From the NCBI GenBank assembly GCA_964036275.1, contig OZ038436.1, forward strand, positions 18,007,904 to 18,071,903: 64,000 bases of DNA. Direction: 5' to 3'. This document shows, piece by piece, positions 1 to 64,000 of the stretch. How positions within the stretch are numbered: position 1 is the first letter of the stretch; every line of letters starts with the position of its first letter. Origin of the DNA: Litoditis marina. Lineage: Eukaryota; Nematoda; Chromadorea; Rhabditida; Rhabditidae. The translations under genes were made by a program, and so were the position numbers. The notes beneath the pieces were generated by a model. That model made no database searches. It was not told the origin of the DNA and saw only the letters and a program-made list of their open reading frames with translations.

Positions 1-69
1 CAAGTAGTATAGTGGTTAGTACTCCACGTTGTGGCCGTGGCGACACAGGTTCGATTCCTGTCTTGGGCA
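1..69 (+). tRNA. tRNA-His(GTG), cut by window start
   Basis: The first three bases of the acceptor stem lie outside the window; the rest is canonical. Confidence 0.93.
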
Positions 70-432
70 TTTCTTTTTGAAAATTCACCATTTTTGATCA
101 AATTTCACAGAGCGAGTGGAGGAACTAATTCATTTCACTCGCCAGATTTTTTTATTGTGAAAATATGAGATCCAGCCCATATAAATTACATTTAAAGTGT
201 ATTTACGTAACTTTGCAAAACCCAAAATCGTCAAAATAGCGGTGAACTGATAACAACATTTGCAACCACATTCTTAGTTGAGAACATTCACAAATGCTTT
301 CTATTTATTATTCTGTCGCATAGAAGTTAATGTTGACTTGCAATAGAACTTTCACAGTGTTGTAGCCCGCTGGTGGGCAGAGGAGAGTGCGGGGTCGTCT
401 CTGATATTTGTCAGCCATTCTATCGGCCCAAG

Positions 433-443
433 TAGTATAGTGG
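433..443 (+). promoter_or_regulatory. Pol III A box (reference unit)
   Basis: TAGTATAGTGG at tRNA bases 8-18 fits the A-box consensus TRGYNNARNNG bound by TFIIIC. It recurs in nearly every unit; A14 is changed to G in one subfamily. Confidence 0.9.
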
Positions 444-475
444 TTAGTACTCCACGTTGTGGCCGTGGCGACACA

Positions 476-486
476 GGTTCGATTCC
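476..486 (+). promoter_or_regulatory. Pol III B box (reference unit)
   Basis: GGTTCGATTCC in the T arm is a perfect match to the B-box consensus GGTTCGANNCC, the main TFIIIC contact. It is deleted in six copies and point-mutated in about fifteen others. Confidence 0.92.
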
Positions 487-501
487 TGTCTTGGGCATTT
501 C

Positions 502-506
502 TTTTT
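502..506 (+). terminator. Pol III terminator (reference unit)
   Basis: A T5 run 5 nt after the tRNA 3' end. A second T5 run at 519-523 could act as backup; in many units of the 21-43 kb tract that second run is reduced to TCTTT. Confidence 0.85.
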
Positions 507-539
507 GAAAATTCACCATTTTTGATCAAATTTCACAGA

Positions 540-570
540 GCGAGTGGAGGAACTAATTCATTTCACTCGC
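540..570 (+). repeat. Spacer hairpin (reference unit)
   Basis: GCGAGTG pairs with CACTCGC across a 17-nt loop. The arm varies between units: GTGGAGG type (here), GAAAGGAGG type (pairing lost) and GTGAATG type (pairing extended). The retrotransposon target GCGAG is the left arm of this hairpin. Confidence 0.7.
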
Positions 571-853
571 CAGATTTTTCTATTGTGAGAATATGAAATC
601 CAGCCCATAGAAATTACATTTAAAGTGTATTTACGTAACTTTGCAAAATCCAAAATCGTCAAAGTAGCGGTGAACTGATAACAACATTTGCAACCACATT
701 CTTAGTTGAGAACATTCACAAATGCTTTCTATTTATTATTCCGTCGCATATAAGTTAATGTTGACTTGCAATAGAACTTTCACAGTGTTGTAGCCCGCTG
801 GTGGGCAGAGGAGAGTGCGGGGTCGTCTCTGATATTTGTCAGCTATTTTATCG

Positions 854-925
854 GCCCAAGTAGTATAGTGGTTAGTACTCCACGTTGTGGCCGTGGCGAC
901 ACAGGTTCGATTCCTGTCTTGGGCA
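854..925 (+). tRNA. tRNA-His(GTG)
   Basis: Canonical copy; T5 follows. Confidence 0.95.
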
Positions 926-1281
926 TTTCTTTTTGAAAATTCACCATTTTTGATCAAGTTTCACAGAGCGAGTGGAGGAACTAATTCATTTCACTCGCCA
1001 GATTTTTTTATTGTGAAAATATGAGATCCAGCCCATAGAAATTACATTTAAAGTGTATTTACGTAACTTTGCAAAATCCAAAATCGTCAAAGTAGCGGTG
1101 AACTGATAACAACATTTGCAACCACATTCTTAGTTGAGAACATTCACAAATGCTTTCTATTTATTATTCTGTCGCATAGAAGTTAATGTTGACTTGCAAT
1201 AGAACTTTCACAGTGTTGTAGCCCGCTGGTGGGCAGAGGAGAGTGCGGGGTCGTCTCTGATATTTGTCAGCCATTCTATCG

Positions 1282-1353
1282 GCCCAAGTAGTATAGTGGT
1301 TAGTACTCCACGTTGTGGCCGTGGCGACACAGGTTCGATTCATGTCTTGGGCA
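1282..1353 (+). tRNA. tRNA-His(GTG), C62A variant
   Basis: C62A breaks the G52:C62 T-stem pair and the next-to-last base of the B box. Confidence 0.88.
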
Positions 1354-1709
1354 TTTCTTTTTGAAAATTCACCATTTTTGATCAAATTTCACAGAGCCAG
1401 TGGAGGAACTAATTCATTTCACTCGTCAGATTTTTTTATTGTGAAAATATGAGATCCAGCCCATATAAATTACATTTAAAGTGTATTTACGTAACTTTGC
1501 AAAATCCAAAATCGTCAAAGTAGCGGTGAACTGATAACAATATTTGCAACCACATTCTTAGTTGAGAACATTCACAAATGCTTTCTATTTATTATTCTGT
1601 CGCATATAAGTTAATGTTGACTTGCAATAGAACTTTCACAGTGTTGTAGCCCGCAGGAGGGCAGAGGAGAGTGCGGGGTCGTCTCTGATATTTGTCAGCC
1701 ATTCTATCG

Positions 1710-1781
1710 GCCCAAGTAGTATAGTGGTTAGTACTCCACGTTGTGGCCGTGGCGACACAGGTTCGATTCCTGTCTTGGGCA
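1710..1781 (+). tRNA. tRNA-His(GTG)
   Basis: Canonical copy; T5 follows. Confidence 0.95.
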
Positions 1782-2137
1782 TTTCTTTTTGAAACTTCAC
1801 CATTTTTGATCAAATTTCACAGAGCGAGTGGAGGAACTAATTCATTTCACTCGCCAGATTTTTTTATTGTGAAAATATGAGATCCAGCCCATATAAATTA
1901 CATTTAAAGTGTATTTACGTAACTTTGCAAAACCCAAAATCGTCAAAATAGCGGTGAACTGATAACAACATTTGCAACCACATTCTTAGTTGAGAACATT
2001 CACAAATGCTTTCTATTTATTATTCTGTCGCATAGAAGTTAATGTTGACTTGCAATAGAACTTTCACAGTGTTGTAGCCCGCTGGTGGGCAGAGGAGAGT
2101 GCGGGGTCGTCTCTGATATTTGTCAGCCATTCTATCG

Positions 2138-2209
2138 GCCCAAGTAGTATAGTGGTTAGTACTCCACGTTGTGGCCGTGGCGACACAGGTTCGATTCCTG
2201 TCTTGGGCA
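2138..2209 (+). tRNA. tRNA-His(GTG), weak terminator
   Basis: Canonical gene, but the adjacent T5 is broken to TCTCTTTG; only the second T5 run remains intact. Confidence 0.94.
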
Positions 2210-2565
2210 TTTCTCTTTGAAAATTCACCATTTTTGATCAAATTTCACAGAGCGAGTGGAGGAACTAATTCATTTCACTCGCCAGATTTTTCTATTGTGA
2301 GAATATGAAATCCAGCCCATAGAAATTACATTTAAAGTGTATTTACGTAACGTTGCAAAATCCAAAATCGTCAAAGTAGCGGTGAACTGATAACAACATT
2401 TGCAACCACATTCTTAGTTGAGAACATTCACAAATGCTTTCTATTTATTATTCTGTCGCATATAAGTTAATGTTGACTTGCAATAGAACTTTCACAGTGT
2501 TGTAGCCCGCTGGTGGGCAGAGGAGAGTGCGGGGTCGTCTCTGATATTTGTCAGCCATTCTATCG

Positions 2566-2637
2566 GCCCAAGTAGTATAGTGGTTAGTACTCCACGTTGT
2601 GGCCGTGGCGACACAGGTTCGATTCCTGTTTTGGGCA
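2566..2637 (+). tRNA. tRNA-His(GTG), C66T
   Basis: C66T turns the last acceptor pair into G7-U66 wobble; otherwise canonical. Confidence 0.93.
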
Positions 2638-2993
2638 TTTCTTTTTGAAAATTCACCATTTTTGATCAAATTTCACAGAGCGAGTGGAGGAACTAATTCA
2701 TTTCACTCGCCAGGTTTTTTTATTGTGAAAATATGAGATCCAGCCCATATAAATTACATTTAAAGTGTATTTACGTAACTTTGCAAAACCCAAAATCGTC
2801 AAAATAGCGGTGAACTGATAACAACATTTGCAACCACATTCTTAGTTGAGAACATTCACAAATGCTTTCTATTTATTATTCTGTCGCATAGAAGTTAATG
2901 TTGACTTGCAATAGAACTTTCACAGTGTTGTAGCCCGCTGGTGGGCAGAGGAGAGTGCGGGGTCGTCTCTGATATTTGTCAGCCATTCTATCG

Positions 2994-3065
2994 GCCCAAG
3001 TAGTATAGTGGTTAGTACTCCACGTTGTGGCCGTGGCGACACAGGTTCGATTCCTGTCTTGGGCA
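2994..3065 (+). tRNA. tRNA-His(GTG)
   Basis: Canonical copy; T5 follows. Confidence 0.95.
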
Positions 3066-3421
3066 TTTCTTTTTGAAAATTCACCATTTTTGATCAAATT
3101 TCACAGAGCGAGTGGAGGAACTAATTCATTTTACTCGCCAGATTTTTTTATTGTGAGAATATGAAATCCAGCCCATAGAAATTACATTTAAAGTGTATTT
3201 ACGTAACTTTGCAAAATCCAAAATCGTCAAAGTAGCGGTGAACTGATAACAAAATTTGCAACCACATTCTTAGTTGAGAACATTCACAAATGCTTTCTAT
3301 TTATTATTATGTCGCATAGAAGTTAATGTTGACTTGCAATAGAACTTTCACAGTGTTGTAGCCCGCTGGTGGGCAGAGGAGAGTGCGGGGTCGTCTCTGA
3401 TATTTGTCAGCCATTCTATCG

Positions 3422-3493
3422 GCCCAAGTAGTATGGTGGTTAGTACTCCACGTTGTGGCCGTGGCGACACAGGTTCGATTCCTGTCTTGGGCA
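3422..3493 (+). tRNA. tRNA-His(GTG), A14G variant
   Basis: A14G changes the near-universal A14 of the D loop and the A box. Confidence 0.88.
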
Positions 3494-3849
3494 TTTCTTT
3501 TTGAAAATTCACCATTTTTGATCAAATTTCACAGAGCGAGTGGAGGAACTAATTCATTTTACTCGCCAGATTTTTTTATTGTGAAAATATGAAATCCAGC
3601 CCATAGAAATTACATTTAAAGTGTATTTACGTAACTTTGCAAAATCCAAAATCGTCAAAGTAGCGGTGAACTGATAACAACATTTGTAACCACATTCTTA
3701 GTTGAGAACATTCACAAATGCTTTCTATTTATTATTCTGTCGCATAGAAGTTAATGTTGACTTGCAATAAAACTTTCACAGTGTTGTAGCCCGCTGGTGG
3801 GCAGAGGAGAGTGCGGGGTCGTCTCTGATATTTGTCAGCCATTCCATCG

Positions 3850-3921
3850 GCCCAAGTAGTATAGTGGTTAGTACTCCACGTTGTGGCCGTGGCGACACAG
3901 GTTCGATTCCTGTCTTGGGCA
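3850..3921 (+). tRNA. tRNA-His(GTG)
   Basis: Canonical; last unit before retrotransposon copy 1. Confidence 0.95.
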
Positions 3922-3963
3922 TTTCTTTTTGAAAATTCACCATTTTTGATCAAATTTCACAGA

Positions 3964-3968
3964 GCGAG
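3964..3968. other. Target site duplication, RTE copy 1, 3' side
   Basis: GCGAG here and at 5903-5907; an uninterrupted unit has it once, so it is the duplicated target. Confidence 0.75.
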
Positions 3969-3983
3969 TTTCAAGTTTCAAGT

Positions 3984-3989
3984 TTTATT
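3984..3989 (-). promoter_or_regulatory. AATAAA polyadenylation signal of RTE copy 1
   Basis: AATAAA on the minus strand, 15 bases before the element end and just upstream of the CTTGAAA tail repeats. Confidence 0.55.
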
Positions 3990-3996
3990 CGTCACA

Positions 3997-4221
3997 TCAC
4001 AATGTTACACAGTGGTGGTCCTTGACCGATCTCCAAATCTGCTTATCTCTGCATGCTCTGAGGTATTCGTGACCACGAATACGCGGCGGGCGGCAACGAC
4101 CTCTTTGTGCTTCTCGGTTGTGGCTTCGGGTGGCTTCAACCAGGTCATCATGCCAGCGGACTGCTGGACGGCCAGGAGATCTCTTTCTGTTGTACGGACA
4201 CCATTCCGTAGCAATCAACGA
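3997..4221 (-). pseudogene. C-terminal part of RTE ORF after in-frame stop
   Basis: Reads in the same frame as the reverse transcriptase ORF ending at 4222, separated from it by one TGA. It encodes about 74 residues including PYNRKRSPGRPAVRWHDDL, typical of the C-terminus of RTE polyproteins (GRP..RW.DDL). The stop sits just before S-L-I-A-T-E-W, where related elements commonly have a tryptophan, so a TGG to TGA change is likely. This is a disabled tail, not a separate gene. Confidence 0.75.
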
Positions 4222-5808
4222 TCAACGACATTTTGACATATGGGCAATTCTGTAAGCAAAGTTTAATTTAAGTTTTGCAGCTTCAATAATAACATCCTTC
4301 AACCGAGTGATTCCGCGCAAAACGGCATTCGGGAGGTGATCTTGTCTCCGACGGTTCAACATCCCTCTTTCCATCTTACGCTGGACAATTCGGAGTCGCT
4401 CAATCTCTGCTTTGGAAAGGGCCCAGGACTCGCAACCGTACAAGAAACGGGGTAGAATGGCCGAGTGAAAGATTTTCCGTTTGTAGCTCATAGGAAACGA
4501 GGGCTTTTTCAGTATGTTTCTGTATTGGTTGAAAGCGGCCCAAGCTGAACTGATTCTTCTTCCGAGCTCTTTCGTCAAAGCTCCATTGTTCGCGATGCTC
4601 ACTCCCAGATATTTGATGATAGCCTTCGGTTTCAGCTCATACCCGCGGTATTTCATTGGAGTTGTGTCGTTCACATTAGTCATGTATTCGGACTTTTTTG
4701 GGTTCATCGTGAGTCCAACTGATTGACATGCGAGCTCAAACACCCTCAGCATTTGACGGAGATCGCGTTTGTTCGAGGCGAAAAGAATACCATCGTCAGC
4801 GAACAACAGATGAGTGAGACGTCTTCCATCAATTCTCAATCCCAAATGGTCCAGCTTGTCCCAGTCAACTTTTTTCAGGGCAGAGTCCAACACAATGGTA
4901 AACAGCCGCGGTGAGATCACATATCCTTGTCGAACTCCTTGTTTTACCTCTATAGGAACTTTGCAACCATTAACAGCAATCGAGGAACTGGAAACCTCGT
5001 ATGTAGCCTTCAGTAGAGCGATAAGGTTGGGATAAATTCCAATTTCACCGAGTGATGACCAAATTGAGTTGTGATGTATACTATCGAATGCTTTGGCCAG
5101 ATCCACGAAGCAGAAAAATGTTGGCAAGCGAAACTCTCTGCACTTCTCCATGACTTGCCGAACAATATGAAGATTGTCAGAAGTTCCATAGTTCTTTCGG
5201 AACCCACATTGCTCTTCAGAGATGTTTTCTTCCATGTAGAGCTCCATTCGATTCAGTAGACAACGCGACAGCACTTTGTACAGGGTATTGAGCAAAGTTA
5301 TGGGCCGATAGTTCCCAATGTCAGTCACATCTCCTTTCTTGAACAATAAAATCGTTCTTGACTCCAGTAACTCTGGTGGAAACACCCCATCTGCAAGTAT
5401 AAAGTTGAACATTCGAGTGAGATCCGAGACGATAACTGGGCTGCCCCATCTCACAGCTTCTGGCGCGATACGGTCCGTTCCTGGCGAAGTTCCAACGGTT
5501 GTTTTTTGGATAGCTAGTTGAACTTCAGATTCAAGAAAAGGAGGGACTTGTTCAATTGTGGACGGTATTATTGCTGGTTGAGAACTGCGATTTTTGTAGA
5601 GGCGGTTGTAGAAAGTTCTTATGATTCTTGCCAAGCCGAGTTCATCATTTGTTAGAATCCCGTTATTGTCTCGGAGGTGAACAATTCTGTTGTTGGCGGG
5701 TTTCCCTTCGTTCATTACTTTGTTGAGACTGTATCCTTGATCTAGCGCCCTTCTTAGTCGAGATTCACGTCGTTTCCGAACATCTTCTTTCCTACTGATT
5801 CTGGCCAT
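4222..5808 (-). CDS. RTE-type reverse transcriptase (copy 1)
   Basis: A 528-residue open frame from the ATG at 5808. The reverse transcriptase would copy element RNA at a nicked genomic target. Visible motifs: LLFKKGD..IGNYRPITLL (about 154-173), CGFRKNYGTSDN (201-212), FVDLAKAFD with catalytic D236 (234-242), GVRQG (291-295), LLFADDG with catalytic DD338-339 (334-340), KYLGVSI (399-405) and the thumb-like LPRFLYGCESWAL (452-464). Copy 1 has Y at residue 296 where copies 2-4 keep the family's RQGD aspartate, plus Y/A changes near 259 and 264. The frame is open upstream of the ATG almost to the truncated 5' end, so this ATG is probably internal to the original protein. No endonuclease domain. 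Probably inactive. Confidence 0.88.
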   Translation of the reverse strand: MARISRKEDVRKRRESRLRRALDQGYSLNKVMNEGKPANNRIVHLRDNNGILTNDELGLARIIRTFYNRLYKNRSSQPAIIPSTIEQVPPFLESEVQLAIQKTTVGTSPGTDRIAPEAVRWGSPVIVSDLTRMFNFILADGVFPPELLESRTILLFKKGDVTDIGNYRPITLLNTLYKVLSRCLLNRMELYMEENISEEQCGFRKNYGTSDNLHIVRQVMEKCREFRLPTFFCFVDLAKAFDSIHHNSIWSSLGEIGIYPNLIALLKATYEVSSSSIAVNGCKVPIEVKQGVRQGYVISPRLFTIVLDSALKKVDWDKLDHLGLRIDGRRLTHLLFADDGILFASNKRDLRQMLRVFELACQSVGLTMNPKKSEYMTNVNDTTPMKYRGYELKPKAIIKYLGVSIANNGALTKELGRRISSAWAAFNQYRNILKKPSFPMSYKRKIFHSAILPRFLYGCESWALSKAEIERLRIVQRKMERGMLNRRRQDHLPNAVLRGITRLKDVIIEAAKLKLNFAYRIAHMSKCR

Positions 5809-6216
5809 TTTGCTCAGAAGTGTGAACTGTAGGCGACCGATTGGAGAAATGTCCGTTTGAAACGTTTGGCGGCGAACGAGGAGGTCAGTTCAGAACGAGG
5901 AGGCGAGTGGAGGAACTAATTCATTTCACTCGCCAGATTTTTTTATTGTGAAAATATGAGATCCAGCCCATATAAATTACATTTAAAGTGTATTTACGTA
6001 ACTTTGCAAAATCCAAAATCGTCAAAGTAGCGGTGAACTGATAACAACATTTGCAACCACATTCTTAGTTGAGAACATTCACAAATGCTTTCTATTTATT
6101 ATTATGTCGCATAGAAGTTAATGTTGATATGCAATAGAACTTTCACAGTGTTGTAGCCCGCTGGTGGGCAGAGGAGAGTGCGGGGTCGTCTCTGATATTT
6201 GTCAGCCATTCTATCG

Positions 6217-6276
6217 GCCCAAGTAGTATAGTGGTTAGTACTCCACGTTGTGGCCGTGGCGACACTGTCTTGGGCA
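6217..6276 (+). pseudogene. tRNA-His pseudogene, B box deleted
   Basis: A 12-nt deletion removes bases 51-62 (the T loop, part of both T-stem arms and the whole B box), leaving GACACTGTCTTGGGCA. It should be neither transcribed well nor folded. Confidence 0.9.
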
Positions 6277-6632
6277 TTTCTTTTTGAAAATTCACCATTT
6301 TTGATCAAATTTCACAGAGCGAGTGGAGGAACTAATTCATTTTACTCGCCAGATTTTTTTATTGTGAGAATATGAAATCCAGCCCATAGAAATTACATTT
6401 GAAGTGTATTTACGTAACTTTGCAAAATCCAAAATCGTCAAAGTAGCGGTGAACTGATAACAACATTTGCAACCACTTTCTTAGTCTAGAACATTCACAA
6501 ATGCTTTCTATTTATTATTCTGTCGCATAGAAGTTAATGTTGACTTGCAATAGAACTTTCACAGTGTTGTAGCCCGCTGGTGGGCAGAGGAGAATGCGGG
6601 GTCGTCTCTGATATTTGTCAGCCATTCTATCG

Positions 6633-6704
6633 GCCCAAGTAGTATAGTGGTTAGTACTCCACGTTGTGGCCGTGGCGACACAGGTTCGATTCCTGTCTTG
6701 GGCA
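6633..6704 (+). tRNA. tRNA-His(GTG)
   Basis: Canonical copy; T5 follows. Confidence 0.95.
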
Positions 6705-7061
6705 TTTCTTTTTGAAAATTCACCATTTTTGATCAAATTTCACAGAGCGAGTGGAGGAACTAATCCATTTCACTCGCCAGATTTTTTTATTGTGAAAATA
6801 TGACATCCAGCCCAATATATATTACATTTAAAGTGTATTTACGTAACTTTGCAAAATCCAAAATCGTCAAAGTAGCGGTGAACTGATAACAAAATTTGCA
6901 ACCACATTCTTAGTTGAGAACATTCACAAATGCTTTCTATTTATTATTCTGTCGCATAGAAGTTAATGTTGACTTGCAATAGAACTTTCACAGTGTTGTA
7001 GCCCGCTGGTGGGCAGAGGAGAGTGCGGGGTCGTCTCTGATATTTGTCAGCCATTCTATCG

Positions 7062-7133
7062 GCCCAAGTAGTATGGTGGTTAGTACTCCACGTTGTGGCC
7101 GTGGCGACACAGGTTCGATTCCTGTCTTGGGCA
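7062..7133 (+). tRNA. tRNA-His(GTG), A14G variant
   Basis: A14G in the A box; adjacent terminator reduced to T4 (CGTTTTG). Confidence 0.87.
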
Positions 7134-7489
7134 TTTCGTTTTGAAAATTCACCATTTTTGATCAAATTTCACAGAGCGAGTGGAGGAACTAATTCATTTC
7201 ACTCGCCAGATTTTTTTATTGTGAAAATATGAAATCCAGCCCATAGAAATTACATTTAAAGTGTATTTACGTAACTTTGCAAAATCCAAAATCGTCAAAG
7301 TAGCGGTGAACTGATAACAACATTTGCAACCACATTCTTAGTTGAGAACATTCACAAATGCTTTCTATTTATTATTCTGTCGCATAGAAGTTAATGTTGA
7401 CTTGCAATAGAACTTTCACAGTGTTGTAGCCCGCTGGTGGGCAGAGGAGAATGCGGGGTCGTCTCTGATATTTGTCAGCCATTCTATCG

Positions 7490-7561
7490 GCCCAAGTAGT
7501 ATAGTGGTTAGTACTCCACGTTGTGGCCGTGGCGACACAGGTTCGATTCCTGTCTTGGGCA
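7490..7561 (+). tRNA. tRNA-His(GTG)
   Basis: Canonical copy; T5 follows. Confidence 0.95.
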
Positions 7562-7917
7562 TTTCTTTTTGAAAATTCACCATTTTTGATCAAATTTCAC
7601 AGAGCGAGTGGAGGAACTAATCCATTTCACTCGCCAGATTTTTTTATTGTGAAAATATGACATCCAGCCCATATAAATTACATTTAAAGTGTATTTACGT
7701 AACTTTGCAAAATCCAAAATCGTCAAAGTAGCGGTGAACTGATAACAAAATTTGCAACCACATTCTTAGTTGAGAACATTCACAAATGCTTTCTATTTAT
7801 TATTCTGTCGCATAGAAGTTAATGTTGACTTGCAATAGAACTTTCACAGTGTTGTAGCCCGCTGGTGGGCAGAGGAGAGTGCGGGGTCGTCTCTGATATT
7901 TGTCAGCCATTCTATCG

Positions 7918-7989
7918 GCCCAAGTAGTATGGTGGTTAGTACTCCACGTTGTGGCCGTGGCGACACAGGTTCGATTCCTGTCTTGGGCA
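7918..7989 (+). tRNA. tRNA-His(GTG), A14G variant
   Basis: Same A14G and T4 terminator as 7062-7133, 856 bp (two units) upstream. Confidence 0.87.
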
Positions 7990-8345
7990 TTTCGTTTTGA
8001 AAATTCACCATTTTTGATCAAATTTCACAGAGCGAGTGGAGGAACTAATTCATTTCACTCGCCAGATTTTTTTATTGTGAAAATATGAAATCCAGCCCAT
8101 AGAAATTACATTTAAAGTGTATTTACGTAACTTTGCAAAATCCAAAATCGTCAAAGTAGCGGTGAACTGATAACAACATTTGCAACCACATTCTTAGTTG
8201 AGAACATTCACAAATGCTTTCTATTTATTATTCTGTCGCATAGAAGTTAATGTTGACTTGCAATAGAACTTTCACAGTGTTGTAGCCCGCTGGTGGGCAG
8301 AGGAGAATGCGGGGTCGTCTCTGATATTTGTCAGCCATTCTATCG

Positions 8346-8417
8346 GCCCAAGTAGTATAGTGGTTAGTACTCCACGTTGTGGCCGTGGCGACACAGGTTC
8401 GATTCCTGTCTTGGGCA
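8346..8417 (+). tRNA. tRNA-His(GTG)
   Basis: Canonical; last unit before RTE copy 2. Confidence 0.95.
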
Positions 8418-8492
8418 TTTCTTTTTGAAAATTCACCATTTTTGATCAAATTTCACAGAGCGAGTTTCAAGTTTCAAGTTTTATTCGTCACA

Positions 8493-8717
8493 TCACAATG
8501 TTACACAGTGGTGGTCCTTGACCGATCCCCAAATCTGCTTATCTCTGCATGCTCTGAGGTATTCGTGACCACGAATACGCGGCGGGCGGCAACGACCTCT
8601 TTGGGCTTCTCGGTTGTGGCTTCGGGTGGCTTCAACCAGGTCATCATGCCAGCGGACTGCTGGACGGCCAGGAGATCTCTTTCTGTTGTACGGACACCAT
8701 TCCGTAGCAATCAACGA
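8493..8717 (-). pseudogene. C-terminal part of RTE ORF after in-frame stop (copy 2)
   Basis: Same in-frame TGA separation as in copy 1, with one H to P change in the tail. Confidence 0.72.
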
Positions 8718-9134
8718 TCAACGACATTTTGACATATGGGCAATTCTGTAAGCAAAGTTTAATTTAAGTTTTGCAGCTTCAATAATAACATCCTTCAACC
8801 GAGTGATTCCGCGCAAAACGGCATTCGGGAGGTGATCTTGTCTCCGACGGTTCAACATCCCTCTTTCCATCTTACGCTGGACAATTCGGAGTCGCTCAAT
8901 CTCTGCTTTGGAAAGGGCCCAGGACTCGCAACCGTACAAGAAACGGGGTAGAATGGCCGAGTGAAAGATTTTCCGTTTGTAGCTCATAGGAAACGAGAGC
9001 TTTTTCAGTATGTTTCTGTATTGGTTGAAAGCGGCCCAAGCTGAACTGATTCTTCTTCCGAGCTCTTTCGTCAAAGCTCCATTGTTCGCGATGCTCACTC
9101 CCAGATATTTGATGATAGCCTTCGGTTTCAGCTC
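8718..9134 (-). pseudogene. RTE reverse transcriptase, C-terminal fragment (copy 2)
   Basis: Encodes the segment from ELKPKAIIKYLGVSI to MSKCR, cut off from the catalytic part by the nested element. The open frame extends upstream into the nested element, which supplies an unrelated start. One P to L change relative to the other copies. Confidence 0.85.
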
Positions 9135-9214
9135 CTCTAGAATTTGGCGGCGACTCGCCGGCGACATGGAGGGGTCGGCAGAGTGTCGCCGGCGGGTCGC
9201 CTGCGATTATTTTT
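9135..9214 (+). repeat. Left terminal inverted repeat of MITE-like element
   Basis: 80-bp GC-rich arm, partner at 9425-9504. Confidence 0.85.
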
Positions 9215-9424
9215 AGGTCCTTCACATTGAACGTTCAATATAGTAATCAGAGACCGTAACTGGTAATTTTAGAGAGAATTAAAATGTTGTATATACTCAT
9301 CGTCGCCAGAAATGGACACGATGAGATTCACGGCTTCATTGTTCATGTATAAACATGTTACCCACTTAAAAACTACAAGTATACGTATCTGATTAACACA
9401 TATCTTATTCAGAATCAACGCCCC

Positions 9425-52576: not shown

Positions 52577-52648
52577 TGCCCAAGACAGGAATCGAACCTG
52601 TGTCGCCACGGCCACAACGTGGAGTACTAACCACTATACTACTTGGGC
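52577..52648 (-). tRNA. tRNA-His(GTG)
   Basis: Canonical; T6 follows. Confidence 0.95.
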
Positions 52649-54718: not shown

Positions 54719-54790
54719 TGCCCAAGTCAGGAATCGAACCTGTATCGCCACGGCCACAACGTGGAGTACTAACCACTATACTACTTGGGC
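54719..54790 (-). tRNA. tRNA-His(GTG), T65A and C48T
   Basis: Repeats 53434 at +1,285 with both changes. Confidence 0.88.
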
Positions 54791-55146
54791 CGATAGAATG
54801 GCTGACAAATATCAGAGACGACCCCGCACTCTCCTCTGCCCACCAGCGGGCTACAACACTGTGAAAGTTCTATTGCAAGTCAACATTAACTTCTATGCGA
54901 CAGAATAATAAATAGAAAGCATTTGTGAATGTTCTCAACTAAGAATGTGGTTGCAAATGTTGTTATCAGCTCACCGCTACTTTGACGATTTTGGATTTTG
55001 CAAAGTTACTTAAATACAGTTTAAATGTAATTTCTATGGGCTGGATTTCATATTTTCACAATAAAAAAGTCTGGCGAGTGAAATGAATTAGTTCCTCCAC
55101 TCGCTCTGTGAAATTCGATCAAAAATGGTGAATTTTCAAAAAGAAA

Positions 55147-55218
55147 TGCCCAAGTCAGGAATCGAACCTGTGTCGCCACGGCCACAACGTGGAGTACTAA
55201 CCACTATACTACTTGGGC
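55147..55218 (-). tRNA. tRNA-His(GTG), T65A variant
   Basis: A49:A65 mismatch; repeats 53862. Confidence 0.89.
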
Positions 55219-55575
55219 CGATAGAATGGCTGACAAATATCAGAGACGACCCCGCACTCTCCTCTGCCCACCAGCGGGCTACAACACTGTGAACGTTCTA
55301 TTGCAAGTCAACATTAACTTCTATGCGACAGAATAATAAATAGAAAGCATTTGTGAATGTTCTCAACTAAGAATGTGGTTGCAAATGTTGTTATCAGTTC
55401 ACCGCTACTTTGACGATTTTGGATTTTGCAAAGTTACGTAAATACACTTTAAATGTAATTTATATGGGCTGGATTTCATATTTTCACCATAAAAAACATC
55501 TGGCGAGTGAAATGAATTAGTTCCTCCTTTCGCTCTGTGAAATTTGATCAAAAATGGTGAATTTTCAAAAAGAAA

Positions 55576-55647
55576 TGCCCAAGACAGGAATCGAACCTGT
55601 GTCGCCACGGCCACAACGTGGAGTACTAACCACTATACTACTTGGGC
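55576..55647 (-). tRNA. tRNA-His(GTG)
   Basis: Canonical; repeats 54291 at +1,285. Confidence 0.95.
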
Positions 55648-56003
55648 CGATAGAATGGCTGACAAATATCAGAGACGACCCCGCACTCTCCTCTGCCCAC
55701 CAGCGGGCTACAACACTGTGAAAGTTCTATTGCAAGTCAACATTAACTTCAATGCGACAGAATAATAAATAGAAAGAATTTGTGAATGTTCTCAACTGCG
55801 AATGTGGTTGCAAATGTTGTTATCAGTTCACCGCTACTTTGACGATTTTGGATTTTGCAAAGTTACTTAAATACAGTTTAAATGTAATTTCTATGGGCTG
55901 GATTTCATATTTTCACAATAAAAAAGTCTGGCGAGTGAAATGAATTAGTTCCTCCACTCGCTCTGTGAAATTCGATCAAAAATGGTGAATTTTCAAAAAG
56001 AAA

Positions 56004-56075
56004 TGCCCAAGTCAGGAATCGAACCTGTGTCGCCACGGCCACAACGTGGAGTACTAACCACTATACTACTTGGGC
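56004..56075 (-). tRNA. tRNA-His(GTG), T65A variant
   Basis: A49:A65 mismatch; lacks the C48T of the two preceding periods. Confidence 0.89.
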
Positions 56076-56431
56076 CGATAGAATGGCTGACAAATATCAG
56101 AGACGACCCCGCACTCTCCTCTGCCCACCAGCGGGCTACAACACTGTGAAAGTTCTATTGCAAGTCAACATTAACTTCTATGCGACAGAATAATAAATAG
56201 AAAGCATTTGTGAATGTTCTCAACTAAGAATGTGGTTGCAAATGTTGTTATCAGCTCACCGCTACTTTGACGATTTTGGATTTTGCAAAGTTACTTAAAT
56301 ACAGTTTAAATGTAATTTCTATGGGCTGGATTTCATATTTTCACAATAAAAAAGTCTGGCGAGTGAAATGAATTAGTTCCTCCACTCGCTCTGTGAAATT
56401 CGATCAAAAATGGTGAATTTTCAAAAAGAAA

Positions 56432-56503
56432 TGCCCAAGTCAGGAATCGAACCTGTGTCGCCACGGCCACAACGTGGAGTACTAACCACTATACTACTTG
56501 GGC
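56432..56503 (-). tRNA. tRNA-His(GTG), T65A variant
   Basis: A49:A65 mismatch. Confidence 0.89.
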
Positions 56504-56859
56504 CGATAGAATGGCTGACAAATATCAGAGACGACCCCGCACTCTCCTCTGCCCACCAGCGGGCTACAACACTGTGAAAGTTCTATTGCAAGTCAACATT
56601 AACTTCAATGCGACAGAATAATAAATAGAAAGAATTTGTGAATGTTCTCAACTGCGAATGTGGTTGCAAATGTTGTTATCAGTTCACCGCTACTTTGACG
56701 ATTTTGGATTTTGCAAAGTTACTTAAATACAGTTTAAATGTAATTTCTATGGGCTGGATTTCATATTTTCACAATAAAAAAGTCTGGCGAGTGAAATGAA
56801 TTAGTTCCTCCACTCGCTCTGTGAAATTCGATCAAAAATGGTGAATTTTCAAAAAGAAA

Positions 56860-56931
56860 TGCCCAAGACAGGAATCGAACCTGTGTCGCCACGGCCACAA
56901 CGTGGAGTACTAACCACTATACTACTTGGGC
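56860..56931 (-). tRNA. tRNA-His(GTG)
   Basis: Canonical copy. Confidence 0.95.
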
Positions 56932-57287
56932 CGATAGAATGGCTGACAAATATCAGAGACGACCCCGCACTCTCCTCTGCCCACCAGCGGGCTACAACAC
57001 TGTGAAAGTTCTATTGCAAGTCAACATTAACTTCTATGCGACAGAATAATAAATAGAAAGCATTTGTGAATGTTCTCAACTAAGAATGTGGTTGCAAATG
57101 TTGTTATCAGCTCACCGCTACTTTGACGATTTTGGATTTTGCAAAGTTACTTAAATACAGTTTAAATGTAATTTCTATGGGCTGGATTTCATATTTTCAC
57201 AATAAAAAAGTCTGGCGAGTGAAATGAATTAGTTCCTCCACTCGCTCTGTGAAATTCGATCAAAAATGGTGAATTTTCAAAAAGAAA

Positions 57288-57359
57288 TGCCCAAGTCAGG
57301 AATCGAACCTGTGTCGCCACGGCCACAACGTGGAGTACTAACCACTATACTACTTGGGC
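57288..57359 (-). tRNA. tRNA-His(GTG), T65A variant
   Basis: A49:A65 mismatch. Confidence 0.89.
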
Positions 57360-57715
57360 CGATAGAATGGCTGACAAATATCAGAGACGACCCCGCACTC
57401 TCCTCTGCCCACCAGCGGGCTACAACACTGTGAAAGTTCTATTGCAAGTCAACATTAACTTCAATGCGACAGAATAATAAATAGAAAGAATTTGTGAATG
57501 TTCTCAACTGCGAATGTGGTTGCAAATGTTGTTATCAGTTCACCGCTACTTTGACGATTTTGGATTTTGCAAAGTTACTTAAATACAGTTTAAATGTAAT
57601 TTCTATGGGCTGGATTTCATATTTTCACAATAAAAAAGTCTGGCGAGTGAAATGAATTAGTTCCTCCACTCGCTCTGTGAAATTCGATCAAAAATGGTGA
57701 ATTTTCAAAAAGAAA

Positions 57716-57783
57716 TGCCCAAGACAGGAATCCTGTGTCGCCACGGCCACAACGTGGAGTACTAACCACTATACTACTTGGGC
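57716..57783 (-). pseudogene. tRNA-His pseudogene, T loop deleted
   Basis: Same 4-nt loss of bases 54-57 as 48302-48369, but U33 is intact here. Confidence 0.88.
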
Positions 57784-58139
57784 CGATAGAATGGCTGACA
57801 AATATCAGAGACGACCCCGCACTCTCCTCTGCCCACTAGCGGGCTACAACACTGTGAAAGTTCTATTGCAAGTCAACATTAACTTCTATGCGACAGAATA
57901 ATAAATAGAAAGCATTTGTGAATGTTCTCAACTAAGAATGTGGTTGCAAATGTTGTTATCAGTTCACCGCTACTTTGACAATTTTGGATTTTGCAAAGTT
58001 ACGTAAATACACTTTAAATGTAATTTCTATAGGCTGGATTTCATATTCTCACAATAAAAAAATCTGGCGAGTGGAATGAATTAGTTCCTCCTTTCGCTCT
58101 GTGAAATTTGATCAAAAATGGTGAATTTTCGAAAAGAAA

Positions 58140-58211
58140 TGCCCAAGACAGGAATCGAACCTGTGTCGCCACGGCCACAACGTGGAGTACTAACCACTAT
58201 ACTACTTGGGC
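58140..58211 (-). tRNA. tRNA-His(GTG)
   Basis: Canonical gene with T4 terminator; matches 49582 at offset 8,558. Confidence 0.94.
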
Positions 58212-58567
58212 CGATAGAATGGCTGACAAATATCAGAGACGACCCCGCACTCTCCTCTGCCCACCAGCGGGCTACAACACTGTGAACGTTCTATTGCAAG
58301 TCAACATTAACTTCTATGCGACAGAATAATAAATAGAAAGCATTTGTGAATGTTCTCAACTAAGAATGTGGTTGCAAATGTTGTTATCAGTTCACCGCTA
58401 CTTTGACGATTTTGGATTTTGCAAAGTTACGTAAATACACTTTAAATGTAATTTATATGGGCTGGATTTCATATTTTCACAATAAAAACATCTGGCGAGT
58501 GAAATGAATTAGTTCCTCCTTTCGCTCTGTGAAATTTGATCAAAGATGGTGAATTTTAAAAAAGAAA

Positions 58568-58639
58568 TGCCCAAGACAGGAATCGAACCTGTGTCGCCAC
58601 GGCCACAACGTGGAGTACTAACCACTATACTACTTGGGC
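58568..58639 (-). tRNA. tRNA-His(GTG)
   Basis: Canonical; T6 follows. Confidence 0.95.
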
Positions 58640-58995
58640 CGATAGAATGGCTGACAAATATCAGAGACGACCCCGCACTCTCCTCTGCCCACCAGCGGGC
58701 TACAACACTGTGAACGTTCTATTGCAAGTCAACATTAACTTCTATGCGACAGAATAATAAATAGAAAGCATTTGTGAATGTTCTCAACTAAGAATGTGGT
58801 TGCAAATGTTGTTATCAGTTCACCGCTACTTTGACGATTTTGGATTTTGCAAAGTTACGTAAATACACTTTAAATGTAATTTATATGGGCTGGATTTCAT
58901 ATTTTCACAATAAAAACATCTGGCGAGTGAAATGAATTAGTTCCTCCTTTCGCTCTGTGAAATTTGATCAAAGATGGTGAATTTTAAAAAAGATA

Positions 58996-59067
58996 TGCCC
59001 AAGACAGGAATCGAACCTGTGTCGCCACGGCCACAACGTGGAGTACTAACCACTATACTACTTGGGC
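58996..59067 (-). tRNA. tRNA-His(GTG)
   Basis: Canonical; T6 follows after ATATC. Confidence 0.95.
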
Positions 59068-59423
59068 CGATAGAATGGCTGACAAATATCAGAGACGACC
59101 CCGCACTCTCCTCTGCCCACCAGCGGGCTACAACACTGTGAACGTTCTATTGCAAGTCAACATTAACTTCTATGCGACAGAATAATAAATAGAAAGCATT
59201 TGTGAATGTTCTCAACTAAGAATGTGGTTGCAAATGTTGTTATCAGTTCACCGCTACTTTGACGATTTTGGATTTTGCAAAGTTACGTAAATACATTTTA
59301 AATGTAATTTATATGGGCTGGATTTCATATTTTCACCATAAAAACATCTGGCGAGTGAAATGAATTAGTTCCTCCTTTCGCTCTGTGAAATTTGATCAAA
59401 AATGGTGAATTTTCAAAAAGAAA

Positions 59424-59495
59424 TGCCCAAGACAGGAATCGAACCTGTGTCGCCACGGCCACAACGTGGAGTACTAACCACTATACTACTTGGGC
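59424..59495 (-). tRNA. tRNA-His(GTG)
   Basis: Canonical copy. Confidence 0.95.
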
Positions 59496-59851
59496 CGATA
59501 GAATGGCTGACAAATATCAGAGACGACCCCGCACTCTCCTCTGCCCAACAGCGGGCTACAACACTGTGAAAGTTCTATTGCAAGTCAACATTAACTTATA
59601 TGCGACAGAATAATAAATAGAAAGCATTTGTGAATGTTCTCAACTAAGATTGTGGTTGCAAATGTTGTTATCAGTTCACCGCTACTTTGACGATTTTGGA
59701 TTTTGCAAAGTTACGTAAATACACTTTAAATGTAATTTATATGGGCTGGATTTCATATTTTCACAATAAAAACATCTGGCGAGTGAAATGAATTAGTTCC
59801 TCCTTTCGCTCTGTGAAATTTGATCAAAGATGGTGAATTTTAAAAAAGAAA

Positions 59852-59923
59852 TGCCCAAGACAGGAATCGAACCTGTGTCGCCACGGCCACAACGTGGAGT
59901 ACTAACCACTATACTACTTGGGC
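59852..59923 (-). tRNA. tRNA-His(GTG)
   Basis: Canonical copy. Confidence 0.95.
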
Positions 59924-60279
59924 CGATAGAATGGCTGACAAATATCAGAGACGACCCCGCACTCTCCTCTGCCCAACAGCGGGCTACAACACTGTGAAAG
60001 TTCTATTGCAAGTCAACATTAACTTATATGCGACAGAATAATAAATAGAAAGCATTTGTGAATGTTCTCAACTAAGATTGTGGTTGCAAATGTTGTTATC
60101 AGTTCACCGCTACTTTGACGATTTTGGATTTTGCAAAGTTACGTAAATACACTTTAAATGTAATTTATATGGGCTGGATTTCATATTTTCACAATAAAAA
60201 CATCTGGCGAGTGAAATGAATTAGTTCCTCCTTTCGCTCTGTGAAATTTGATCAAAGATGGTGAATTTTAAAAAAGAAA

Positions 60280-60351
60280 TGCCCAAGACAGGAATCGAAC
60301 CTGTGTCGCCACGGCCACATCGTGGAGTACTAACCACTATACTACTTGGGC
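60280..60351 (-). tRNA. tRNA-His(GTG), T32A
   Basis: T32A in the anticodon loop. The upstream flank lacks about 10 bp (AACTTCTATG) near 60,450, shortening this unit. Confidence 0.92.
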
Positions 60352-60698
60352 CGATAGAATGGCTGACAAATATCAGAGACGACCCCGCACTCTCCTCTGC
60401 CCACCAGCGGGCTACAACACTGTGAACGTTCTATTGCAAGTCAACATTGCGACAGAATAATAAATAGAAAGCATTTGTGAATGTTCTCAACTAAGAATGT
60501 GGTTGCAAATGTTGTTATCAGTTCACCGCTACTTTGACGATTTTGGATTTTGCAAAGTTACGTAAATACATTTTAAATGTAATTTATATGGGCTGGATTT
60601 CATATTTTCACCATAAAAACATCTGGCGAGTGAAATGAATTAGTTCCTCCTTTCGCTCTGTGAAATTTGATCAAAAATGGTGAATTTTCAAAAAGAAA

Positions 60699-60770
60699 TG
60701 CCCAAGACAGGAATCGAACCTGTGTCGCCACGGCCACAACGTGGAGTACTAACCACTATACTACTTGGGC
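60699..60770 (-). tRNA. tRNA-His(GTG)
   Basis: Canonical copy. Confidence 0.95.
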
Positions 60771-61126
60771 CGATAGAATGGCTGACAAATATCAGAGACG
60801 ACCCCGCACTCTCCTCTGCCCAACAGCGGGCTACAACACTGTGAAAGTTCTATTGCAAGTCAACATTAACTTATATGCGACAGAATAATAAATAGAAAGC
60901 ATTTGTGAATGTTCTCAACTAAGATTGTGGTTGCAAATGTTGTTATCAGTTCACCGCTACTTTGACGATTTTGGATTTTGCAAAGTTACGTAAATACACT
61001 TTAAATGTAATTTATATGGGCTGGATTTCATATTTTCACCATAAAAACATCTGGCGAGTGAAATGAATTAGTTCCTCCTTTCGCTCTGTGAAATTTGATC
61101 AAAAATGGTGAATTTTCAAAAAGAAA

Positions 61127-61198
61127 TGCCCAAGACAGGAATCGAACCTGTGTCGCCACGGCCACAACGTGGAGTACTAACCACTATACTACTTGGGC
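61127..61198 (-). tRNA. tRNA-His(GTG)
   Basis: Canonical copy. Confidence 0.95.
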
Positions 61199-61554
61199 CG
61201 ATAGAATGGCTGACAAATATCAGAGACGACCCCGCACTCTCCTCTGCCCAACAGCGGGCTACAACACTGTGAAAGTTCTATTGCAAGTCAACATTAACTT
61301 ATATGCGACAGAATAATAAATAGAAAGCATTTGTGAATGTTCTCAACTAAGATTGTGGTTGCAAATGTTGTTATCAGTTCACCGCTACTTTGACGATTTT
61401 GGATTTTGCAAAGTTACGTAAATACACTTTAAATGTAATTTATATGGGCTGGATTTCATATTTTCACAATAAAAACATCTGGCGAGTGAAATGAATTAGT
61501 TCCTCCTTTCGCTCTGTGAAATTTGATCAAAGATGGTGAATTTTAAAAAAGAAA

Positions 61555-61626
61555 TGCCCAAGACAGGAATCGAACCTGTGTCGCCACGGCCACAACGTGG
61601 AGTACTAACCACTATACTACTTGGGC
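61555..61626 (-). tRNA. tRNA-His(GTG)
   Basis: Canonical; T6 follows. Confidence 0.95.
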
Positions 61627-61982
61627 CGATAGAATGGCTGACAAATATCAGAGACGACCCCGCACTCTCCTCTGCCCAACAGCTGGCTACAACACTGTGA
61701 AAGTTCTATTGCAAGTCAACATTAACTTATATGCGACAGAATAATAAATAGAAAGCATTTGTGAATGTTCTCAACTAAGATTGTGGTTGCAAATGTTGTT
61801 ATCAGTTCACCGCTACTTTGACGATTTTGGATTTTGCAAAGTTACGTAAATACACTTTAAATGTAATTTATATGGGCTGGATTTCATATTTTCACAATAA
61901 AAACATCTGGCGAGTGAAATGAATTAGTTCCTCCTTTCGCTCTGTGAAATTTGATCAAAAATGGTGAATTTTCAAAAAGAAA

Positions 61983-62054
61983 TGCCCAAGACAGGAATCG
62001 AACCTGTGTCGCCACGGCCACAACGTGGAGTACTAACCACTATACTACTTGGGC
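61983..62054 (-). tRNA. tRNA-His(GTG)
   Basis: Canonical copy. Confidence 0.95.
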
Positions 62055-62410
62055 CGATAGAATGGCTGACAAATATCAGAGACGACCCCGCACTCTCCTC
62101 TGCCCAACAGCGGGCTACAACACTGTGAAAGTTCTATTGCAAGTCAACATTAACTTATATGCGACAGAATAATAAATAGAAAGCATTTGTGAATGTTCTC
62201 AACTAAGATTGTGGTTGCAAATGTTGTTATCAGTTCACCGCTACTTTGACGATTTTGGATTTTGCAAAGTTACGTAAGTACACTTTAAATGTAATTTATA
62301 TGGGCTGGATTTCATATTTTCACAATAAAAACATCTGGCGAGTGAAATGAATTAGTTCCTCCTTTCGCTCTGTGAAATTTGATCAAAAATGGTGAATTTT
62401 CAAAAAGAAA

Positions 62411-62482
62411 TGCCCAAGACAGGAATCGAACCTGTGTCGCCACGGCCACAACGAGGAGTACTAACCACTATACTACTTGGGC
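62411..62482 (-). tRNA. tRNA-His(GTG), A29T variant
   Basis: A29T makes T29:T41 in the anticodon stem. Confidence 0.88.
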
Positions 62483-62840
62483 CGATAGAATGGCTGACAA
62501 ATATCAGAGACGACCCCGCACTCTCCTCTGCCCACCAGCGGGCTACAACACTGTGAAAGATCTATTGCAAGTCAACATTAACTTATATGCGACAGAATAA
62601 TAATTAGAAAGCATTTGTGAATGTTCTCAACTAAGAATGTGGTTGCAAATGTTGTTATCAGTTCACCGCTACTTTGACGATTTTGGATTTTGCAAAGTTA
62701 CGTAAATACACTTTAAATGTAATTTCTATGGGCTGGATTTCATATTCTCACATTAAAAAAATATCTGGCGAGTGAAATGAATTAGTTCCTCCACTCGCTC
62801 TGTGAAATTTGATCAAAAATGGTGAATTTTCAAAAAGAAA

Positions 62841-62900
62841 TGCCCAAGACAGGAATCGAACCTGTGTCGCCACGGCCACAACGTGGAGTACTAACCACTA
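62841..62900 (-). pseudogene. tRNA-His fragment, 5' end lost at foldback junction
   Basis: Retains the last 60 bases (D-stem end to A73). The acceptor 5' strand and most of the A box are replaced by the junction. Confidence 0.9.
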
Positions 62901-62902
62901 AT

Positions 62903-62919
62903 GATTCCTGTCTTGGGCA
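62903..62919 (+). pseudogene. tRNA-His 3' fragment at foldback junction
   Basis: Only the T loop from G57, the T-stem 3' arm, acceptor 3' arm and A73 remain; T5 follows. Confidence 0.88.
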
Positions 62920-63275
62920 TTTCTTTTTGAAAATTCACCATTTTTGATCAAATTCCACAGAGCGAGTGAATGAACTAATTCATTTCACTCGCCAGATTTT
63001 TTTATTGTGAAAATATGAAATCCAGCCCATAGATATTACATTTAAAGTGTATTTACGTAACTTTGCAAAATCCAAAATCGTCAAAGTAGCGGTGAACTGA
63101 TAACAACATTTGCAACCACATTCTTGGTTGAGAACCTTCACAAATGCTTTCTATTTATTATTCTGTCGCATAGAAGTTAATGTTGACTTGCAATAGAACT
63201 TTCACAGTGTTGTAGCCCGCTAGTGGGCAGAGGAGAGTGCGGGGTCGTCTCTGATGTTTGTCAGCCATTCTACTG

Positions 63276-63347
63276 GCCCAAGTAGTATAGTGGTTAGTAC
63301 TCCACGTTGTGGCCGTGGCGACACAGGTTCGATTCCTGTCTTGAGCA
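63276..63347 (+). tRNA. tRNA-His(GTG), G70A variant
   Basis: G70A makes C3:A70 in the acceptor stem. Confidence 0.88.
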
Positions 63348-63703
63348 TTTCTTTTTGAAAATTCACCATTTTTGATCAAATTTCACAGAGCGAAAGGAGG
63401 AACTAATTCATTTCACTCGCCAGATTTTTTTATTGTGAGAATATGAAATCCAGCCTATAGAAATTACATTTAGAGTGTATTTACGTAACTTTGCAAAATC
63501 CAAAATCGTCAAAGTAGCGGTGAACTGATAACAACATTTGCAACCACATTCGCAGTTGAGAACATTCACAAATTCTTTCTATTTATTATTCTGTCGCATA
63601 GAAGTTAATGTTGACTTGCAATAGAACTTTCACAGTGTTGTAGCCCGCTAGTGGGCAGAGGAGAGTGCGGGGTCGTCTCTGATGTTTGTCAGCCATTCTA
63701 CTG

Positions 63704-63775
63704 GCCCAAGTAGTATAGTGGTTAGTACTCCACGTTGTGGCCGTGGCGACACAGGTTCGATTCCTGTCTTGGGCA
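63704..63775 (+). tRNA. tRNA-His(GTG)
   Basis: Canonical copy; T5 follows. Confidence 0.95.
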
Positions 63776-64000
63776 TTTCTTTTTGAAAATTCACCATTTT
63801 TGATCAAATTTCACAGAGCGAGTGGAGGAACTAATTCATTTCACTCGCCAGATATTTTTTTAATGTGAGAATATGAAATCCAGCCCATAGAAATTACATT
63901 TAAAGTGTATTTACGTAACTTTGCAAAATCCAAAATCGTCAAAGTAGCGGTGAACTGATAACAACATTTGCAACCACATTCTTAGTTGAGAACATTCACA

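What the first reader, a model, noticed from the sequence alone, without database searches (positions are those of the whole stretch)
1..64000. A satellite-scale array of more than 120 tRNA-His(GTG) genes
Every 428-bp unit over 64 kb carries a tRNA-His gene, and the array runs off both window edges. One isoacceptor at this dose far exceeds what I would expect decoding to need. Possible roles: a reservoir for histidine tRNA or tRNA fragments, TFIIIC-bound chromatin barrier or nuclear-organisation DNA, or a selfish satellite that captured a tRNA gene. The sequence shows the array; the role is inference.
Basis: partly seen in the sequence, partly recalled or inferred. Interest (0 to 1): 0.88.

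Follow-up and report, generated by a model that had tools for sequence, protein, structure and literature searches.

The report
Nematode histidine-tRNA genes in tandem array
A marine roundworm keeps its histidine tRNA genes as a 130-kb block of near-identical repeats, much as animals keep ribosomal RNA genes, and at least four other tRNA genes of the same genome are arranged in a similar way.

Summary
The array is real. ARAGORN finds 121 tRNA-His(GTG) genes in the window. The block continues beyond both edges to about 130 kb with 274 tRNA-His genes. It is not one head-to-tail array: it switches strand three times, carries four copies of one retrotransposon insertion, and some units have a broken tRNA. 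The genome is a nematode, Litoditis or a very close relative (COX1 516 of 517 residues identical). His is not alone: Thr(TGT), Arg(TCG), Thr(AGT) and initiator-Met genes also sit in single-type arrays. Patterns built to exclude the repeat version found no tRNA-His outside this array, so it looks like the gene supply itself, not a surplus; exact patterns can miss genes. In three arrays, mutations inside the tRNA became common less often than spacer mutations. That fits working genes kept alike by recombination and selection better than a selfish satellite. The same organisation is published for Hydractinia, a related one for Entamoeba; eight paper searches showed none for a nematode. Transcription and any structural role are untested.

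The parts
1..48005 (+). Plus-strand block of 428-bp tRNA-His(GTG) units, 87 ARAGORN genes, interrupted by four retrotransposon copies
48183..62900 (-). Inverted block of the same unit, 32 ARAGORN genes
62903..64000 (+). Plus-strand block again (continues to window position 67803, then minus to 95014)
426..497 (+). First complete tRNA-His(GTG) gene: consensus sequence, 72 nt, Rfam tRNA 67.3 bits
433..443 (+). Box A-like internal promoter TAGTATAGTGG of that gene (motif recalled)
   Evidence: read by eye
476..486 (+). Box B GGTTCGATTCC of that gene (motif recalled)
   Evidence: read by eye
498..506 (+). T-rich Pol III terminator TTTCTTTTT; a TTTT lies within 25 nt downstream of 281 of 281 ARAGORN tRNA-His genes of the 224 kb
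498..853 (+). 356-bp spacer of the first full unit
376..400 (+). Upstream block (-50 to -26) about as uniform as the tRNA (0.4% mismatch over the units); possible upstream element, function inferred
3970..5902 (-). Non-LTR retrotransposon fragment (Pfam RVT_1; ORF 4225-5889), copy 1 of 4 at the same site of the unit
8466..10770 (-). Copy 2 of the retrotransposon fragment, with 372 extra bases
13768..15700 (-). Copy 3 of the retrotransposon fragment
18259..20191 (-). Copy 4 of the retrotransposon fragment

Best explanation
This is the nuclear tRNA-His(GTG) gene family of a Litoditis-like nematode, organised like 5S rDNA: one gene and its own spacer, repeated several hundred times, with the main block on one chromosome. 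SHOWN: intact tRNA structure and Pol III signals in most units; sequence homogeneity with greater similarity between neighbours; block duplication of units together with a retrotransposon insertion; fewer common variants in the tRNA than in the spacer; four other tRNA types arrayed likewise. INFERRED: each intact unit is transcribed by Pol III from its internal promoter; unequal crossing-over and gene conversion spread or remove variants; selection on tRNA supply stops broken versions from spreading; array length sets gene dose.
For: Intact genes: 26 of 26 matches in window 1-21000 above the Rfam cut-off; 278 of 289 units full length; terminator in 281 of 281. Concerted evolution: mean unit difference rises from 0.034 at lag 1 to 0.050 at lag 200; the closest relative lies within six units for 146 of 281; four insertion copies at one site are 99.6-99.95% identical. 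Constraint, variants present in more than 5% of units: His 1 of 72 tRNA sites vs 41 of 356 spacer sites (Fisher p=0.004), Arg 1 of 73 vs 50 of 215 (p=2e-6), Thr(TGT) 2 of 74 vs 10 of 75 (p=0.03). Supply: 301 exact core matches genome-wide, 261 of them in the region read; two patterns made to exclude the repeat version found 3 and 2 places, all inside this array; the longer form of the second pattern without the exclusion matches 268 places in the 224 kb. Generality: Thr(TGT) 75 genes at 149 bp, Arg(TCG) 40 genes at about 287 bp, Thr(AGT) (4 genes read), initiator Met 87 of 89 exact cores in one 32-kb array.
Against: No expression or chromatin data. 112 of 289 units are not the consensus tRNA; 8 lack part of the T-arm and 32 differ at position 61 in the T-stem/box B, so damaged copies are tolerated. 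In the His array singleton changes per site are higher in the tRNA than in the spacer (0.375 vs 0.225), deletions are commoner in the tRNA (0.0043 vs 0.0006), and the >10% cut-off alone gives p=0.098; for Thr(TGT) the copies-per-variant test gives p=0.12. Units share descent, so these tests are not independent. His cores outnumber initiator-Met cores 301 to 89, so dose is not simply proportional to need. 38 of the 301 core matches were not located. Exact patterns recalled for Asp and Lys found nothing, so a divergent tRNA-His elsewhere could have been missed.
Confidence: 0.8

Rival explanations
1. A satellite DNA that captured a tRNA gene and spread by its own copying dynamics; the tRNA is a passenger.
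For: Satellite-like scale, strand inversions, damaged copies tolerated, stray units 22-32 kb beyond and about 0.4 Mb before the main block; tRNA singletons and deletions not rarer than in the spacer in the His array.
Against: Common variants are rarer in the tRNA than in the spacer in three arrays; no tRNA-His outside this array by two exclusion patterns; several tRNA types show the same form with different spacers.
Confidence: 0.1
2. A structural array: TFIIIC-bound DNA used as chromatin barrier or for nuclear organisation.
For: Boxes A and B are in the consensus tRNA carried unchanged by 177 of 289 units; flanks are repeat-rich and share inverted segments on the two sides.
Against: The whole tRNA, not only boxes A and B, is uniform; nothing here measures binding. 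Not exclusive with the gene-family reading.
Confidence: 0.07
3. Assembly artefact: one or few units expanded by the assembler.
For: Read depth could not be checked.
Against: 226 of 281 units distinct, 5 adjacent identical pairs, unit-specific insertions and inversions, no N in the 224 kb, inside a 24.7-Mb contig.
Confidence: 0.03

Closest known systems
Hydractinia ncRNA tandem arrays (PMC11067881; passages read; supplements not seen)
   Same: [quoted passage not shown] Nematostella also said to have tRNA arrays.
   Different: Cnidarian, not nematode; here five tRNA types shown so far, the Thr(TGT) spacer is only 75 bp, and a within-array constraint test is added.
Entamoeba tRNA gene arrays (PMC2652664; abstract and Function section read)
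   Same: Almost all tRNA genes in tandem arrays; most copies of a unit uniform within an isolate; function unclear.
   Different: Entamoeba units hold up to five tRNA genes; in E. histolytica short tandem repeats lie between them. Here one tRNA per unit and no such repeats in the spacer. No clear pseudogenes were seen there; damaged copies occur here.
Clustered tDNAs across eukaryotes (PMC2888827; passages read)
   Same: [quoted passage not shown]
   Different: Five Caenorhabditis species there have 820-1587 tDNAs with 45-84% synteny; Nematostella pairs are mostly of mixed type.
Human tRNA VNTR at 1q23.3 (PMC4041453; search listing and start of abstract only)
   Same: Tandem repeat containing tRNA genes.
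   Different: 7.3-kb unit binding CTCF, 9-43 copies per allele.
5S rDNA / nematode SL1 arrays (organisation recalled; SL1-like arrays seen here)
   Same: One small RNA gene plus spacer per unit in tandem.
   Different: Here the gene codes a tRNA.

Membership tests
Functional eukaryotic tRNA-His gene | tRNA fold above Rfam cut-off with GTG anticodon | tested here: met
   consensus 67.3 bits, cut-off 29; Rfam run on window 1-21000 only
Functional eukaryotic tRNA-His gene | Internal boxes A and B and a T-run terminator | tested here: met
   boxes read by eye in one unit; 281 of 281 with TTTT; 8 of 289 units lack part of the box B region and 32 differ at position 61
Functional eukaryotic tRNA-His gene | Transcribed, G-1 added and charged | not testable with these tools
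   no RNA data
Hydractinia-type tRNA tandem arrays | Tens to hundreds of near-identical, roughly evenly spaced copies of one tRNA type | tested here: met
[quoted passage not shown]
   His 356 bp fits; Thr(TGT) 75 bp does not
Hydractinia-type tRNA tandem arrays | tRNAs of all 20 amino acids arrayed | tested here: inconclusive
   His, Thr (two anticodons), Arg, iMet found; recalled Asp and Lys patterns matched nothing, arrayed or not
Hydractinia-type tRNA tandem arrays | Other small RNAs arrayed too | tested here: inconclusive
   50 of 50 scored SL1 matches full length, many about 1.36 kb apart, but all under the Rfam cut-off; 5S and U RNAs not tested
Entamoeba tRNA arrays | Several different tRNAs per unit, with short tandem repeats in E. 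histolytica | tested here: not met
   one tRNA per unit; in the window TRF lists the array period (428, one row 416) and short repeats only at the strand switch 48056-48163
Selfish satellite with passenger tRNA | tRNA part evolves like the spacer | tested here: not met
   common variants rarer in the tRNA in three arrays; but singletons and deletions in the His tRNA are not rarer
tRNA-derived SINE | Dispersed copies with a non-tRNA body and tail | tested here: not met
   tandem; the 100 listed of 301 core matches are all on C2, 38 unlocated

The most novel reading that the evidence does not exclude
In this nematode lineage nearly all nuclear tRNA genes have moved from dispersed sites into single-isoacceptor arrays, so that each tRNA's gene dose is an array length that can change by unequal crossing-over, and differences between individuals or stages in array length or chromatin state tune the tRNA pool.
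Probability: 0.35. Interest if true: 0.78.

Novelty: new member of a known kind. Interest (0 to 1): 0.55.

Why it matters
Five Caenorhabditis species have 820-1587 tDNAs with rather high synteny (PMC2888827, passages). A rhabditid nematode with rDNA-like tRNA arrays would show that this organisation arises again in an animal group far from cnidarians, and Litoditis marina is said to be open to gene editing (PMC9025465, passages). It makes testable whether tRNA arrays set translation capacity and how selection works on a gene family of hundreds of near-identical copies.

Tried and rejected
Shared upstream promoter motif between arrays: six pairwise local alignments of 80 bp upstream of four tRNA types gave one uncorrected p=0.021, the others 0.062-0.59; not claimed. 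Patterns for tRNA-Asp and tRNA-Lys, recalled from memory, matched nothing; since these tRNAs are essential, exact patterns can miss real genes, which also limits. The box B count (9566 vs 36 in the reversed control) is not a tRNA gene count: five of seven small loci checked held no tRNA by ARAGORN, and one looks SINE-like. A comparison of COX1 with PDB sequences gave cytochrome oxidases without naming a useful relative. A cnidarian host was considered after reading the Hydractinia paper and dropped on the COX1 result. The first divergence test (267 of 281 units kept) used ARAGORN-picked units and was replaced by the BLAST-picked set (His 273 of 302 stretches kept, Thr 73 of 75, Arg 40 of 53; shorter stretches and those under 85% identity dropped). 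The Heterorhabditis genome paper (PMC3715494, passages) gives 254 tRNA genes there and 659 in C. elegans and mentions no arrays in the passages seen. The zebrafish tRNA paper (PMC11417395, abstract and outline) shows stage-dependent tRNA use and was not used further.
Full report
OBSERVATION. The window is G000:C2:18007904-18071903 of a 261.8-Mb assembly in 522 contigs. ARAGORN gives 121 tRNA-His(GTG) genes: 87 on the plus strand, 32 on the minus strand, 2 on the plus strand again. Tandem Repeats Finder gives a 428-bp period. I fetched 160 kb of neighbouring chromosome. The main block runs from window -34748 to 95014, about 130 kb, in + / - / + / - orientation; stray units lie at 117-127 kb. 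In the 224 kb examined ARAGORN lists 284 tRNAs: 279 His(GTG), 2 His(ATG), 2 Gly(GCC), 1 Tyr(GTA). Seven of the 281 His genes are strays, so 274 lie in the main block. Two more core matches lie about 0.4 Mb upstream.

Of 289 units with both flanks, 278 carry a 72-nt tRNA; 177 are identical to the consensus, 84 differ at one site, 17 at two; 11 carry deletions (six of 12 nt, two of 4 nt, three of 3 nt), and position 61 differs in 32. A 1933-bp fragment of a non-LTR retrotransposon (RVT_1, E=4.7e-38) sits at the same place of the unit four times, 99.6-99.95% identical, one copy with 372 extra bases. The simplest reading is that one insertion was copied along with its surrounding units.

ORGANISM. 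Contig C522 carries a mitochondrial COX1. Read with the invertebrate code it matches a protein filed under Litoditis (listed as 100%; 516 of 517 residues identical). Nuclear fragments of mitochondrial DNA on C16 and C4 are 95% (191 bases) and 91% (141 bases) identical to it. SL1 RNA, to my knowledge a nematode family, matches in arrays on C1 and C4: 50 matches scored of 85271 first-look candidates, all 50 over the whole model but under the Rfam cut-off. The genome is thus most likely a Litoditis or very near relative, a rhabditid nematode.

NOT ONLY HISTIDINE. An Rfam tRNA search of the genome scored 63 of 29039 first-look candidates and led to two more arrays. Reading them shows 75 Thr(TGT) genes mostly at 149-bp spacing and 40 Arg(TCG) genes plus one called Glu, mostly at about 287 bp; the Arg array reaches both ends of what I fetched. 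On C1, 68 of the 100 listed box B matches fall in C1:1718275-1779142, most of them 626-664 bp apart; the listing stops there; four genes read there are Thr(AGT). A recalled initiator-Met core has 89 exact matches in the genome, 87 in one array at C4:7730430-7762400, mostly 297-298 bp apart. A TTTT lies within 25 nt downstream in 75 of 75 Thr(TGT), 40 of 41 Arg-array and 4 of 4 Thr(AGT) genes.

SUPPLY. The tRNA-His core pattern has 301 exact matches genome-wide; 261 are in the region read, 2 upstream, 38 not located because the listing stops at 100. A pattern made to exclude the repeat version found 3 places and a looser one 2; all lie inside this array. As a local control, a slightly longer form of the looser pattern without the exclusion matches 268 places in the 224 kb. 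A pattern asking for a base other than G before the gene, with CC at positions 3-4, found none. So no ordinary dispersed tRNA-His was found. The limit: recalled exact patterns for Asp and Lys also found nothing, so a gene with a divergent box A could be missed.

HOW IT EVOLVES. 226 of 281 units are distinct; neighbours are more alike than distant units (0.034 at lag 1, 0.050 at lag 200; all 281 ARAGORN-picked units, those next to insertions included). This is what local unequal exchange or conversion leaves. Within this turnover the tRNA is held: mean substitution frequency tRNA vs spacer 0.0059 vs 0.0229 (His, 273 of 302 stretches), 0.0035 vs 0.0221 (Thr-TGT, 73 of 75), 0.0065 vs 0.0475 (Arg, 40 of 53). 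Variants above 5% of units: 1 of 72 tRNA sites vs 41 of 356 spacer sites (His, p=0.004), 2 of 74 vs 10 of 75 (Thr, p=0.03), 1 of 73 vs 50 of 215 (Arg, p=2e-6). Above 10%: p=0.098, 0.018 and 6e-5. Copies per variant: p=1e-4 (His), 0.12 (Thr), 6e-4 (Arg). New changes do occur in the His tRNA (27 singletons over 72 sites, 0.375 per site, against 0.225 in the spacer), but few become common. An upstream stretch at -50 to -26 is as uniform as the tRNA (0.004). Against the reading: deletions in the His tRNA are more frequent than in the spacer, and a fair share of units is damaged.

MECHANISM. The most likely reading is a tRNA gene family run like 5S rDNA: many Pol III units, kept alike by recombination, with selection acting on the supply as a whole and tolerating a share of broken units. 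Transcription is inferred from intact structure, promoters and terminators, not seen. His cores (301) outnumber initiator-Met cores (89), so copy number does not simply follow demand; array drift or silent units may explain it.

KNOWN WORK. [quoted passage not shown] Entamoeba array units hold up to five tRNA genes; their authors report no link of gene number with codon usage and think it likely that many copies are silent (PMC2652664, abstract and Function section). A survey gives 820-1587 tDNAs in five Caenorhabditis species (PMC2888827, passages). In eight paper searches, of which I saw the listings, no title or abstract start reported tRNA arrays in a nematode; the library holds open-licence PMC papers only and no preprints, and the L. 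marina genome is cited there as a preprint (PMC9025465, passages), which I could not read.

VERDICT. Real, mostly as described, but one of at least five tRNA arrays in its genome and with a published parallel: a new member of a known kind, in what seems to be a new animal group.

Noticed in passing
window -49999..-35295 and 139-174 kb (L024, L021, L018-L023): The left flank recurs inverted in the right flank: 21 pieces over 800 bp, 92.7-99.3% identical, 19 of them at 97% or more (shorter pieces dropped); both flanks hold minisatellites and CT-rich runs.
   Followed up: partly
window 48006-48182, 62901-62902, 67803/67804: Strand switch points: one with about 180 bp holding AT-rich short repeats, the other two nearly without gap.
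   Followed up: no
window 114201 and 115933: Two tRNA-Gly(GCC) genes 1732 bp apart, each beside a copy of a zinc-knuckle-like open frame (by eye).
   Followed up: no
L043 (C1:7101-7500): Palindromic repeat near the start of contig C1 that contains tRNA-Gly-like pieces (by eye); box B matches recur near there in sets about 20 kb apart.
   Followed up: no
window -18372, and window 82846 and 83703: One array unit is called tRNA-Tyr(GTA) and two carry a His(ATG) anticodon: anticodon variants within the array.
   Followed up: no
G000 C1:64508-90994 and C4:42183491-42489557, 45451691-45457263: SL1-like RNA matches, many about 1.36 kb apart in tandem, all under the Rfam cut-off.
   Followed up: no
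L045 (C1:898701-898900): tRNA-like, SINE-looking element with box A and box B but no ARAGORN tRNA call.
   Followed up: no
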